Part shown: positions 29,900 through 34,207 of the stretch, one piece after another | Position numbering within the stretch: the first letter of the stretch is position 1 | Layout: each line of letters opens with the position of its first letter | Source of the DNA: an uncultured Lachnospiraceae bacterium | GTDB lineage: Bacteria; Bacillota; Clostridia; Lachnospirales; Lachnospiraceae | NCBI GenBank assembly: GCA_902793685.1 | Contig: CADBEN010000021.1 | Location: forward strand, 1 to 38,891 | Direction of reading: 5' to 3' | DNA: 38,891 nt | Notes under the pieces: model-generated | What the model saw: the letters and a program-made list of their open reading frames with translations, nothing else | The model's database searches: none | What the model was told of the DNA's origin: nothing | Translations under genes and position numbers: made by a program

Positions 29900-31111
29900 T
29901 TAAGGCTGGATAGCGACTTCGATTTTTGAATTATCCTTAAATTCGAAAGTCAACGTATCCGGCTTCACAACTACGCATTCTACTAAATCCCCCCAATCTT
30001 GTTCAGTGAATTCCATGACCCCCTCACATCGCGCTAGTGCCTCTATGAATCGATTCAGTTTCTCTCTCATTCCAACCATTTTAAGCTCTTCGGCTTTAAG
30101 GTCTGCGATGAGAGTTTTCTGTTTGTCGATACGCTCCACAAGTTTATTGAACTTTTCACGGTATTTCTGCTGATCCTGAGACTTGCGAGCATTCTCCTGA
30201 ACCAAGGCCTGAATATCAGTCATAAGCGTCTCTAAAGTAATCTCAGCCTGGAATCGATCCTCTTTAAGTTGAGCGAGTGCGCTCTCGTTATTGAGCTTTG
30301 CGTTACAGTCCGCGATATGCGATTCTTTGTCCGACAATAGCCTTTCCAATGCAATCAGATAGTATTTTTCAATATCTGGTTCAGATATGCTCGGAGTACT
30401 GCATTTTTCCTCGCCATCATATCGGCGATTACAATACCATACAACTTTCCGATGCTTCTCACTCGTACTGTGGAGCGTCTTTCTGCCATAAAAGTAACCG
30501 CACTCACCGCAAATGATTTTTGTGCTGAATACACTGTTGTCTCTTAAGGCGGATTTGAACTTACTCCTTCTCGCGAGTTCGGCCTGAACGAGATTAAAAG
30601 TGTCTTCATCCACGATGGCATCGTGCGAATTTGACACATAATACTGTTTGACCTCACCGTTATTCTTGCGAACGGTCTTAGATAGATAGTCTACCGTATA
30701 GGTCTTTTGACGCAAGGCATCACCTTTGTATTTCTCGTTCGAGAGAATACTCTTGACTGTACTGACTGCCCAGTTGTCTTTACCGCCGGGCGTTTTAATG
30801 CCACGGCGCGTCAACTCATCGGCAATAGTGCGAATAGTCTTACCGTCGAGGAACATTCTGTAGATATCTCTTACTACCTCAGCCTCTTCCGGAACGATTT
30901 CAGGGCGACCATCGTCACCTTTTTTATATCCAAGGAAACGCTTATAAGGCAGCGAGATATTACCATCTTGCATACTTTTCTGCATTCCCCAACGGACATT
31001 TTCTGATATAGAGCGGCTTTCTTCCTGAGCGAGACTGGACATGATCGTTAGCATAACTTCACACTGCTTATCTAAGGTTCGGATACCTTCTTTCAGCGAT
31101 GATATTCGCAT
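29900..31111 (-). pseudogene. Large serine recombinase lacking its catalytic domain
   Basis: 403 residues remain. They start at the end of the resolvase domain (LTIMSSLAQEESRSISENVRWG) and include the Recombinase domain (about 55-155), a zinc-ribbon (CGECGYFYGRKT ... WYCNRR, about 200-245), a long coiled coil (about 275-370) and the C-terminal end. The first 85 or so residues, which carry the catalytic serine, are missing and replaced by helicase sequence in another frame. Full-length relatives of about 500 residues excise and insert mobile elements. This one cannot catalyse strand exchange. The apparent start codon is fortuitous. Confidence 0.85.
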
Positions 31112-31862
31112 GGCTGATTGACGGGCAGAAAACTATAGTCTTAGGATGCTCTCTTTCCGCCACTTTTTCGTTAATGATACGGACTATCTCATCATCGCGC
31201 TTAGGGACGAAGATATTCCGATTCAGTTCCGCGATGGTTATATCGTCTCTGCCAAGATACTTGAAGATGTCTTCGATGTCGTCTAGCAGGAGACGATAAT
31301 CTACCGTAGCTAAAAGATGCTCTTTGATGGCCTGTGGCAGGTCTTTTTCATAGATTACATCACCGAAAATCTCAGAGATATTCAGGCCGTCCAAGCGTTT
31401 TGGTGTTGCCGTCATCCCCAAAAGGAACTGAGGCATGAAGTAGGTAATCACTTTCTTGAAAGTGCTTGCCTGTCCATGATGAGCTTCGTCAACTACGATG
31501 TAGTAAAATTCCTGTGTGTCAAATTCCTTTAAATGTAGCTTCATGGTCTGAAAAGAGGCAAATAGGAAATTGACCCGATGAGATGTTTTTTCTACGCCTG
31601 TATACAGACCATAACTATACTCCTCTCCGAATACTGACATATATTCAGTTTTCGCCTTGTTGAGGATTTCGTTGTTGTGGCACAGAAACAGGACCCGGCT
31701 GTCTTCACCACGCTCGGCAAAAAACTCGCGAATACTAAAAGCAGACGTTAGCGTCTTGCCCAATCCCGCGGCCATAACGACAAGGGCTCTATTGCGCCCA
31801 CTTCTGTAGGCGTTGGTCAGCGCTTTAACGCAATCTGCCTGATACGGCTTTGGCTTTTTCAT
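31068..31862 (-). pseudogene. DEAD/DEAH helicase fragment fused to the recombinase
   Basis: 264 residues from a proper start (GGGGGT before ATG at 31862). They contain Walker A (MAAGLGKTLTS), the DEAH box (YIIVVDEAHH-like VVDEAHHGQ), motif III (GMTATPKR) and the start of the second RecA domain (KTIVFCPSISHANII). The reading frame then runs into foreign sequence and stops at 31068. It resembles helicases of restriction or mobile-element systems whose normal length is two to four times greater. The join with the recombinase lies near 31070-31110. Activity is unlikely. Confidence 0.85.
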
Positions 31863-31910: not shown

Positions 31911-32459
<549 letters not shown>

Positions 32460-32683
32460 TAAAAAGTCAAGCCCCAAAATGGACTTGACCGAAAAAGGTT
32501 ACAGAACAGAAAAGGGAGTAGGTAGGTAGCACAAAGAGGCCACCGAGTAAACGCTGGCCTGGCGGTAGATAGCACAGTTGCCCCAGTCAGTCAAGGATAA
32601 ACAGCTTCGCTGCGCCTGCGGCGTCCTTGACAGCCTGTGTCACCTGTGCAAATGGGGAGGAAAGGGCGGCAAAGCCGCCTCAG

Positions 32684-33925
32684 TCAGCAGGAAGGCTGCT
32701 GAGGATCTTTACCTGACGCTTCGTTCTCCAAGGTGTCCAGGTAGTTCATCACCTTGGCGTAGTAATGACGAAGGAACTTGTTTGCGCCGGCCGTCATGTA
32801 GACGTAGTAGGGCTTGCCCTCAGAACGTTTCTTGTCCAGGAACTGGTAAATTGGATCATCTACAGGAGATTTCTGCAAGATCGTACTCATCAAGCAGAAC
32901 AACGTCTTTCTGAGATAAGGGGAACCTCTCTTCGTGGTTTTGTTGCTGCGTGAAGTTTTGTCGCCGGAATCGTTCGGCGCGGGATCTACACCGGCAAAAG
33001 CCACCAAGGACTGCTTCCTAGCGAACCGGCGAACGTCACCGATCTCAGCCATGAGCTGGGGGCCGAAGGAAGTTCCTACGCCATACTGAGCCATAACGAT
33101 TGGATACTCCGGAAGCGTGGAAGCAAGCCGATTCATTTCGGCACGGTAAGTTTCCACAGAGCGAGAAATACTGGTAAGCTGTGCAGCTGCCTGCTGAACA
33201 AGCACCTTGGTTGTCTCATTCTTGGAGACAAGGACAACAGCGGACATTGCCAGCGCGTAGACTTCGGCAGCCTTGTCCGTATTGAAGTTGTAGCCGTGTC
33301 TTTTACACCACTTGCGGTAGCGTTCCGTGAAGGCCTTAAGGCTCACTTTGCGAACACAATCAACGTGCCAGAAGGTATAAGTGAAGTCCACCCACTTCTG
33401 TGTGCCGTCGCTGCGAACCGGACTGTCAAAACATTTGCGGATGCCGGGGAAGGATTGCTCCTGAAGGGCAACAAAATTATTACTCAGAGCAGTCCTGGTC
33501 TTGGATGCGAGCTGAAACTGGCGATGCATTGTTTTCAAGTTGTAACGTGTCTCATCCATGGGGGTATAATCCCGCAGTTCTGCCCAGTTGTCAAGGCCGT
33601 ATTTGGCGATCTTCACGGCATCAGCCTTGTCCGTCTTGACCTTGCGGAGAGAATTGCCGCCGTACTCCTTGATGAGGAGAGGATTTACAGCGCTTACGAA
33701 TAAACCGGCCTCATGGAGCGATTTGGCAATGGATTCATAGTATCGTCCGGTATGCTCCATGACCACGCGGCTTTCTCCCTCCAACTGCTGTAGAAACTGG
33801 GACAGGGAGAGCAGGGACACTGAATCATGGCGAACCTCAAAAGGGGCGCTGACTACTTCTCCAAGCGGGCGAAGAACCGCAACCATACTTCTGCCGTTAG
33901 AAACATCGATTCCCACTGAGTTCAT
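32684..33925 (-). CDS. IS110-family transposase (DEDD recombinase)
   Basis: About 413 residues from the ATG at 33925, which has AGGAG eight bases upstream; a GTG three codons earlier is the alternative start. The N-terminal RuvC-like DEDD domain shows D7 (VGIDVS), E57 (VVMEHTG) and D99/D102 (KTDKADA). The C-terminal Transposase_20 domain carries LVAFAGVDPAPNDSG and RGSPYLRKTL with the conserved catalytic Ser. The protein appears complete, so the element may still be active. In this family the enzyme binds a bridge RNA made from the element's end and joins donor and target DNA guided by it. Confidence 0.95.
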   Translation of the reverse strand: MNSVGIDVSNGRSMVAVLRPLGEVVSAPFEVRHDSVSLLSLSQFLQQLEGESRVVMEHTGRYYESIAKSLHEAGLFVSAVNPLLIKEYGGNSLRKVKTDKADAVKIAKYGLDNWAELRDYTPMDETRYNLKTMHRQFQLASKTRTALSNNFVALQEQSFPGIRKCFDSPVRSDGTQKWVDFTYTFWHVDCVRKVSLKAFTERYRKWCKRHGYNFNTDKAAEVYALAMSAVVLVSKNETTKVLVQQAAAQLTSISRSVETYRAEMNRLASTLPEYPIVMAQYGVGTSFGPQLMAEIGDVRRFARKQSLVAFAGVDPAPNDSGDKTSRSNKTTKRGSPYLRKTLFCLMSTILQKSPVDDPIYQFLDKKRSEGKPYYVYMTAGANKFLRHYYAKVMNYLDTLENEASGKDPQQPSC

Positions 33926-33949
33926 CTTCAACACTCCTGATAGAAAGAT

Positions 33950-34124
33950 TCGTAATGGACACAGCCAACTTTACCCATTGCTTGTTCTATCTGTTTGATG
34001 ACGCGAACACTTCGGGGACGCCGATGATTCTACCTGCACAAATCGAATGCTGCGAACAGGAGGCTGGCTGACTGACTTTCTCACGGACATGCAAGTCCTT
34101 GGAGTGACAGGCCAGACCATTACC
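33950..34124 (-). ncRNA. Candidate IS110 bridge (guide) RNA
   Basis: Minus strand, upstream of the transposase. Two loop structures are seen in the order known for IS621. First, a target loop: outer stem CUGGC/GCCAG (34111-34115 with 34064-34068), apical hairpin GGAC/GUCC (34095-34098 with 34085-34088), left guide UCACUCC (34101-34107) and right guide GAGAAAG (34076-34082). Second, a donor loop: outer stem UGUUC/GAACA (34054-34058 with 33983-33987), left guide UGCAGGU (34032-34038) and right guide AACAG (33991-33995). The right target guide pairs with CT plus TTCTC of the real insertion site. The donor guides match the element's own ends. Length from the predicted start is about 175 nt; ends are estimates. 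Confidence 0.7.
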
Positions 34125-34130
34125 CCTCCT

Positions 34131-34159
34131 ATTCTACAGCTTAGGCAATGAGATGTCCC
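34131..34159 (-). promoter_or_regulatory. Promoter for the candidate bridge RNA
   Basis: On the minus strand GGGACA (34154-34159) and TAGAAT (34131-34136) are spaced exactly 17 bp. A start about seven bases downstream, near 34124, would begin the RNA just before the target-loop stem. Confidence 0.55.
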
Positions 34160-34207
34160 ATGCCGATGGCTGGCTGCCATGAACAAGGGGCAAATATATA
34201 GTAACAG

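What the first reader, a model, noticed from the sequence alone, without database searches (positions are those of the whole stretch)
33950..34159. Candidate IS110 bridge RNA whose guides match the actual insertion site
The element's 5' noncoding region carries a 17-bp-spaced promoter followed by two loop structures. In element orientation the insertion site reads ...CCACAC-CT-TTCTC... and the element ends read ...TTTGCAGG-CT at the right end and CT-GTTACTA at the left end. In 5' to 3' order the RNA contains UCACUCC, close to the left target: one internal mismatch and one wobble, with the core C matched. It then contains GAGAAAG, perfectly complementary to CT plus TTCTC. Next comes UGCAGGU, matching TGCAGG plus the core C by wobble. 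Last is AACAG, complementary to CT plus GTT. The order (left target, right target, left donor, right donor), the enclosing stems and the length of about 175 nt all agree with IS621-type bridge RNAs. This gives a testable programme for a new element.
Basis: partly seen in the sequence, partly recalled or inferred. Interest (0 to 1): 0.8.

Follow-up and report, generated by a model that had tools for sequence, protein, structure and literature searches.

The report
Jumping gene guided to ribosome-binding sites

Summary
An IS110-group element (window 32452-34205, minus strand) splits a small serine-resolvase gene and carries a bridge-RNA-like structure upstream of its recombinase. In relatives the guides change together with the DNA they should pair with. 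Target-guide matches exceeded all 2000 permutations in each of four tests. The right donor guide matched the element end in 78 of 78 parsed loci. Two stem-loops with guides in internal loops are supported by covariation.

The clade's programmed target resembles the 3' end of 16S rRNA (TCACCTC-CT-TTCT, or CTCCTTT-CT), and the elements mostly insert at Shine-Dalgarno sequences. An ATG-started frame began 6-24 nt from the insertion in 43 of 73 junctions and in 19 of 28 further ones, against 11% of random AG sites and 20% of AGGAG sites. The window's own insertion is off-pattern: inside a gene, mismatched at -2.

Bridge-RNA guidance is known, and IS900 is reported to target translation-initiation signals. 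The apparently new point is a guide resembling the anti-Shine-Dalgarno tail. Expression and activity are untested.

The parts
32452..34205 (-). IS110-group element between the two CT cores (AG on the + strand at 32450-32451 and 34206-34207)
   Evidence: ends shared with relatives; resolvase reading frame resumes across the junction
32684..33925 (-). DEDD recombinase gene; ATG at 33925 likelier than the listed GTG at 33934. Counting from that GTG: D10, E60, D102, D105 and S323-G324 in a G--P----SG motif (numbers counted by me on the alignment)
   Evidence: PF01548 2.9e-25, PF02371 9.6e-18; matches ISCro4 and IS621 chains in the PDB; motif as described in PMC11187229 (passage)
33950..34124 (-). 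predicted bridge RNA, about 175 nt; start inferred from the -10 box, end from the conserved region
   Evidence: alignments and consensus structure; transcription not shown
34131..34159 (-). candidate internal promoter GGGACA-17-TAGAAT
   Evidence: the -10 box reads TAGAAT, TATAAT or TACAAT in relatives
34101..34107 (-). left target guide UCACUCC (pairs with left target -6..-1 and core C)
   Evidence: covariation at -7..-3 in the window's clade
34076..34082 (-). right target guide GAGAAAG (pairs with core CT and right target +1..+5)
   Evidence: covariation at +1..+5
34032..34038 (-). left donor guide UGCAGGU (matches right-end TGCAGG, then core)
   Evidence: follows changes of the right end
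33991..33995 (-). right donor guide AACAG (complement of CT-GTT at the left end)
   Evidence: 78 of 78 parsed loci match over 5 nt, four different sequences
32465..32490 (-). intrinsic terminator-like hairpin at the right end; its TTGACT (32470-32465) would sit 17 bp from TACTAT (34203-34198) in a circle
   Evidence: 2 such sites found, 2.3 expected by shuffling, so not significant alone; junction spacing read
32190..32451 (+). 5' part of the split small serine resolvase gene
   Evidence: PF00239
34206..34560 (+). 3' part of the split resolvase gene
   Evidence: PF00239

Best explanation
The region encodes the bridge RNA of an IS110-group element. Its first internal loop holds two target guides and its second two donor guides. 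The RNA holds the recombinase on the target and on the circular element, which recombine at a CT dinucleotide. In this clade the target guides resemble the 3' end of 16S rRNA, split at the core, so the elements seek Shine-Dalgarno sequences and insert at or just upstream of them, leaving the ribosome-binding site and start codon of the neighbouring gene intact. The window copy landed instead on a Shine-Dalgarno-like stretch inside a resolvase gene, with a full right-guide match (+1 to +5) and an imperfect left-guide match. Shown by sequence: the guides, their covariation with target and ends, the structure, the site preference. Inferred: transcription, protein binding, catalysis, and selection for mimicry of 16S rRNA.
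For: Guide-target covariation in two clades, 0 of 2000 permutations in each of four tests. Donor guides follow the element ends in several states. Structure: 97.3% of cells paired, covariation score 0.220, against 0.170 for shuffles (0 of 500 reach it) and at most 0.069 for slid versions. Start-codon test: 43 of 73 junctions, against 11.0% of 39013 random AG sites, 19.7% of 837 AGGAG sites and 7 of 74 right flanks. Further set: 19 of 28. The 16S 3' end in two genomes of the same genus reads GGATCACCTCCTTTCT. Left guides match it at two different registers in two clades, 4.64 and 5.21 of 7 against shuffled maxima 3.11 and 4.14. Five of 82 parsed loci carry exactly TCACCTC-C, three of them with TTCT on the right. 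L039, L062 and L080, with other left guides, sit at matching sites that are not Shine-Dalgarno sequences.
Against: The window's own site is inside a gene and mismatched at -2. In 30 of 73 and 9 of 28 junctions no ATG frame passed the test. L085 has the same left guide as L039 but sits at a Shine-Dalgarno-like site that this guide does not match. The core T is unpaired by the left guide in the window's clade (0% match). The right guide of the second clade does not follow 16S (1.41 of 5). Two of five structure measures did not clearly exceed shuffles. The window's single-sequence fold is not remarkable. No expression data.
Confidence: 0.9

Rival explanations
1. It is an ordinary bridge RNA, and the conserved CUCC of the left guide is kept for RNA structure or protein contact; the Shine-Dalgarno preference is a by-product.
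For: Positions -3 to core C are the same in 35 of 36 distinct guide pairs of the window's clade plus intermediates, and -2 shows no covariation there.
Against: The second clade uses another register of the same 16S tail (TTCCTTT-CT type), and some of its relatives carry TTCCTCC at the core (L127, L129, L132). L062, L039 and L080 have lost the motif and target accordingly.
Confidence: 0.2
2. Survivorship: CCTCC-type guides hit many sites, but insertions outside genes survive better, so start regions are over-represented.
For: Insertion at these sites leaves reading frames whole; AGGAG sites in general are near starts in 19.7% of 837 cases.
Against: It does not explain guides that match 16S at two registers. 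It can add to guide targeting rather than replace it; 43 of 73 and 19 of 28 against 19.7% could be a mixture of both.
Confidence: 0.3
3. The conserved region is only a 5' leader or attenuator of the recombinase mRNA, and the guide matches are coincidence.
For: It lies directly upstream of the recombinase gene; promoter evidence is weak.
Against: Permutation tests on genomic target sites, and donor-guide changes that follow the element ends.
Confidence: 0.02

Closest known systems
IS621 and its bridge RNA (Durrant et al. 2024, PMC11208160, named sections and passages read; Hiraizumi et al. 2024, PMC11208158, passages read)
   Same: IS110 group, upstream noncoding RNA, target loop then donor loop, guide order left then right, CT core, DEDD plus serine recombinase
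   Different: IS621 targets REP elements (passage); here the programmed target resembles the 16S 3' tail. The recombinase is a distant relative (one stretch, residues 4-112, E 3.1e-13)
IS900 of Mycobacterium avium subsp. paratuberculosis (Doran et al. 1997; only its title seen, in the reference list of PMC8141618)
   Same: IS110 family; reported to target translation-initiation signals
   Different: No guide-RNA explanation was found in the passages read here; where exactly IS900 inserts relative to Shine-Dalgarno and start codon was not checked
seekRNA elements ISEc11 and ISEc21 (Siddiquee et al. 2024, PMC11187229, passages and one section read)
   Same: RNA-guided target choice, natural reprogramming between relatives
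   Different: Targets are other sequences; no word beginning 'Shine' occurs in the main text held

Membership tests
IS110 group | DEDD RuvC-like N-terminal domain and PF02371 C-terminal domain with conserved SG | tested here: met
   S323-G324 aligned to the SG of ISCro4
IS110 group | longer noncoding region with the RNA upstream of the recombinase (left end) | tested here: met
   left end 273 nt to the listed GTG, holding the RNA; right end about 230 nt in the window
IS110 group | no long subterminal inverted repeats (these mark the IS1111 group) | not tested
   no inverted-repeat search was run
Bridge RNA of IS110 | two stem-loops with internal guide loops | tested here: met
   (26 sequences)
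Bridge RNA of IS110 | 5' loop follows the target, 3' loop the donor | tested here: met
Bridge RNA of IS110 | RNA expressed and bound by the recombinase | not testable with these tools
   no RNA data; promoter scan weak
Bridge RNA of IS110 | guides can be reprogrammed to move insertion | not testable with these tools
   natural reprogramming only (L014, L062, L080)
Rfam families | match to a curated RNA family | tested here: not met
   0 matches at gathering threshold

The most novel reading that the evidence does not exclude
Bridge RNAs of this IS110 clade are molecular mimics of the 16S rRNA anti-Shine-Dalgarno tail, selected because the ribosome keeps that target present and near-constant in nearly every bacterium. 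Another IS110 clade uses a different widespread signal, the T-tract of intrinsic terminators. RNA-guided IS110 elements would thus gain host-independent, gene-sparing landing sites by copying the cell's own expression signals.
Probability: 0.6. Interest if true: 0.78.

Novelty: new variant of a known kind. Interest (0 to 1): 0.66.

Why it matters
It gives a natural set of tens of elements whose guides and targets can be read side by side, and a simple principle for choosing broad yet gene-sparing targets: copy the ribosome's own recognition sequence. It may offer an RNA-level explanation for the older report that IS900 targets translation-initiation signals. It also makes a direct test easy, since changing a few guide bases should move insertion away from ribosome-binding sites.

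Tried and rejected
Rfam scan: no family. Megablast of the element against plasmids: no match. tblastn of the recombinase against phage records: 24 records, all under 60% identity; not used further. 16S in the window's own genome: none found, so two genomes of the same genus were used. A first attempt to score the outer stem of the target loop by regular expression parsed 69 of 88 loci (33 distinct) and gave 148 of 198 paired cells, just above the permutation maximum of 147 (mean 135.8); because of poor parsing it is not used as evidence. No covariance model was built and no protein structure prediction was run. Paper searches. I judged their listings by title and start of abstract, and read passages of seven papers (PMC11208160, PMC11208158, PMC11187229, PMC8141618, PMC7823733, PMC7288454, PMC11616780). 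None of what I saw describes Shine-Dalgarno targeting by a bridge RNA.

Weak points of my parsing. In one search the left guides of L039 and L085 were read one base out of register, and L040 was grouped with the first clade. In one search, 5 of 28 junctions had no parsable guides (L098, L099, L114, L133, L134); three of these counted as ATG hits, so without them the count is 16 of 23. L093 has no CT at its left core. In one search the clades were split slightly differently (36 and 29 distinct guide pairs). At one further register of 16S the first clade also exceeded its shuffles (2.89 of 7, maximum 2.25).

Full report
What is there. On the minus strand an open frame (32684-33934) has both IS110 domains, PF01548 and PF02371, and matches the ISCro4 and IS621 recombinases in the PDB. 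Upstream lie 273 nt of noncoding left end, counted to the listed GTG. The element splits a small serine resolvase gene between 32451 and 34206. The two halves both match PF00239. Read as one protein across the junction, at least 5000 plasmid records match; of the five listed, four align in a single piece (about 52% identity, for example residues 4-199) and one in two pieces. Excision at the CT core would therefore restore the frame. One copy was found in the window's genome, which is a 63-contig assembly.

The observation. A single fold of the region is not striking (z -1.43), no Rfam family matches, and the promoter is a 9-of-12 match. From the window alone the case would be suggestive only.

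Relatives. One scan of genome contigs kept 80 loci of 210 that encode relatives, and one of viral contigs gave 7. With the window this makes 88. The ends are alike in most: CT-GTTAC, CT-ATTAC or CT-ACTAC on the left, TTGACTTTTTATTTGCAGG-CT or close variants on the right. A target-binding loop could be parsed in 82 of 88; L015, L037, L048, L060, L079 and L088 could not.

Target guides. I paired each element's guide with its own flanks and, by permutation, with the flanks of others in its clade, after removing identical pairs and rows without a full flank. Window clade plus intermediates: left side 230 matches over 39 pairs against a permuted mean of 189.9 and maximum of 218; right side 163 over 40 pairs against 88.5 and 113. 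Second clade: left 229 over 35 pairs against 196.9 and 217; right 123 over 30 pairs against 64.0 and 84. None of 2000 permutations reached the observed value in any of the four tests. By position, in the first clade the left signal lies at -7 to -3, with a weaker one at -1; at -2 there is none because the guide base hardly varies. In the second clade it lies at -5 to -2. On the right it is at +1 to +5 in both. There is none at -8 or +6. This is close to the span expected of bridge-RNA guides (8-9 nt and 4-7 nt in PMC11208160, section read). Identical guides occur at different sites that share paired bases (L005 and L082, L017 and L018, L065/L066/L068/L069), so shared guides do not refute the model. 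L003 carries the window's target guides beside a different right flank, CT-TTCGTC, matching at +1 to +3; its left flank is missing. Against the trend, L085 has the left guide of L039 but a left flank that does not match it.

Donor guides. The right donor guide equals the complement of the first five bases CTNNT of the left end in 78 of 78 loci where both could be read, in four states (GTT, ATT, ACT, GGT). The left donor guide matches the right end exactly over six bases in 70 of 82, including joint changes to TGTAGG (L011, L013, L014), TGTAAG (L034), TGCAAG (L021) and TGCAGA (L026, L028, L029). Nine have one G-T wobble, L087 a wobble and a mismatch, L023 a mismatch, and L035 an unclear register (tally by me from its table). 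These states are inherited within clades, so the counts are not independent events.

Structure. On 26 aligned sequences of the 88, chosen from the window's clade, the intermediates and L039, RNAalifold gives two stem-loops with the guides in internal loops. 97.3% of cells pair. The covariation score is 0.220 against 0.170 for shuffles (0 of 500 as high) and at most 0.069 when the partner strand is slid. Thirty-one cells have changes on both sides, against 8.7 in shuffles. The number of further pair types did not exceed shuffles (20 against 21.2), and pairs with double changes did so only weakly (5 against 3.5, 62 of 500).

What the guides spell. I read outward from the left end, starting at the core AG. 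Of 73 distinct junctions (those with at least 120 bases of left flank, duplicates removed, the window counted once with L002), 63 have GGAG, GAGG, AGGA or AAGG in the first 14 nt; no control was run for that count. I asked whether an ATG 6-24 nt from the core opens a frame of at least 50 codons (30 if it runs off the contig). It does in 43 of 73; with GTG and TTG, in 51 of 73. Controls: 11.0% (any start 23.5%) of 39013 random AG sites in the same flanks, 19.7% (31.5%) of 837 AGGAG sites, and 7 (14) of 74 right flanks. With the same criterion I looked at 59 loci from other searches (L090-L148): 8 had no donor-loop motif, 10 no clear left end, 13 repeated a known junction, and of the remaining 28 new junctions 19 passed (21 with any start). 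Leaving out five without parsable guides gives 16 of 23. Fisher p against AGGAG sites is 3.7e-12 for the first set (the 837-site count rebuilt from its rate); binomial p for the second set against 19.7% is 4e-8. Related genomes are not fully independent, so these p-values are guides only.

The 16S 3' end in two genomes of the window's genus reads GGATCACCTCCTTTCT. The programmed target of the window's clade resembles that sequence with the core at CCTC-CT-TT (TCACCTC-CT-TTCT). The second clade uses a core four bases further on (CTCCTTT-CT). Left guides match 4.64 of 7 and 5.21 of 7 at these registers, against shuffled maxima of 3.11 and 4.14. Right guides match 2.69 of 5 in the first clade but only 1.41 of 5 in the second, so there the right guide does not follow 16S. 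Five loci carry exactly TCACCTC-C (L008, L010, L013, L024, L034), and L010, L013 and L024 also specify TTCT on the right, 13 bases identical to 16S in a row. L039, L062 and L080 carry other left guides and sit at matching sites that are not Shine-Dalgarno sequences (L039 matched by eye after correcting the register). Insertion leaves the ribosome-binding site and start codon whole: in the first clade the AG of the core completes the AGGAGG, in the second the motif lies in the flank.

The window copy. Its programme, TCACTC-CT-TTCTC, is a good Shine-Dalgarno complement. Its actual site, CCACAC-CT-TTCTC, lies inside the resolvase gene: the right guide fits at +1 to +5 and the left guide fails at -2. 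L002 shares this insertion. It is best read as an off-pattern landing.

Mechanism and status. By analogy with IS621 (PMC11208158, passages) the RNA would hold the recombinase on target and circular donor, and strands would be exchanged at CT. In a circle the right end's TTGACT would stand 17 bp from the left end's TACTAT, a likely junction promoter (read). PMC11208160 reports such a promoter (section read). None of this is shown here by experiment.

Novelty. Bridge RNAs are known. The title of Doran et al. 1997, seen in the reference list of PMC8141618, says IS900 targets translation initiation signals. The searches listed under Tried and rejected found no report of a bridge RNA that mimics the anti-Shine-Dalgarno tail. 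I rate it a new variant of a known kind.

A side finding. Another IS110 clade (38-41% identical to the window's recombinase) inserts in T-tracts, often after a hairpin: 8 of 13 distinct junctions fold at -7 kcal/mol or lower over 40 nt, against 23% of 2240 random 40-mers; the other 5 do not. The seven members put on a tree form one group with modest support (84/50).

Noticed in passing
left junctions of L107, L108, L109, L111, L113, L153, L159, L162 (weaker: L105): Another IS110 clade (38-41% identity) inserts in T-tracts that mostly follow hairpins, like intrinsic terminators: 8 of 13 junctions fold at -7 kcal/mol or below, against 23% of random 40-mers.
   Followed up: partly
L006, L016, L026, L033, L036, L049, between recombinase and right end: The right end lies 589-794 nt past the recombinase match, against roughly 70-290 in most others; in L006 and L016 the extra DNA seems to hold a small frame (read by eye), perhaps a passenger gene.
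   Followed up: no
window 32590-32631; also L002, L003, L004, L011, L013, L014, L079: A GC-rich block with inverted repeat GTCAAGGA..TCCTTGAC in the right end, absent from the downstream stretch printed for near relatives such as L005, L007 and L009.
   Followed up: no
window 34174-34202 (+): An outward promoter-like site CTGCCA-17-TATAGT at the left end pointing at the neighbouring gene; about one such site is expected by chance.
   Followed up: no
window 29900-31862 (-): A helicase frame (ResIII, 264 aa) overlaps a large serine recombinase frame whose Resolvase match starts only at profile position 96, as if two genes were fused or cut at about 31070-31110.
   Followed up: no
window 34203-34198 and 32470-32465: In a circle the ends would make TTGACT-17-TACTAT; the -35 lies in a terminator-like hairpin, so one sequence may serve both.
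   Followed up: no
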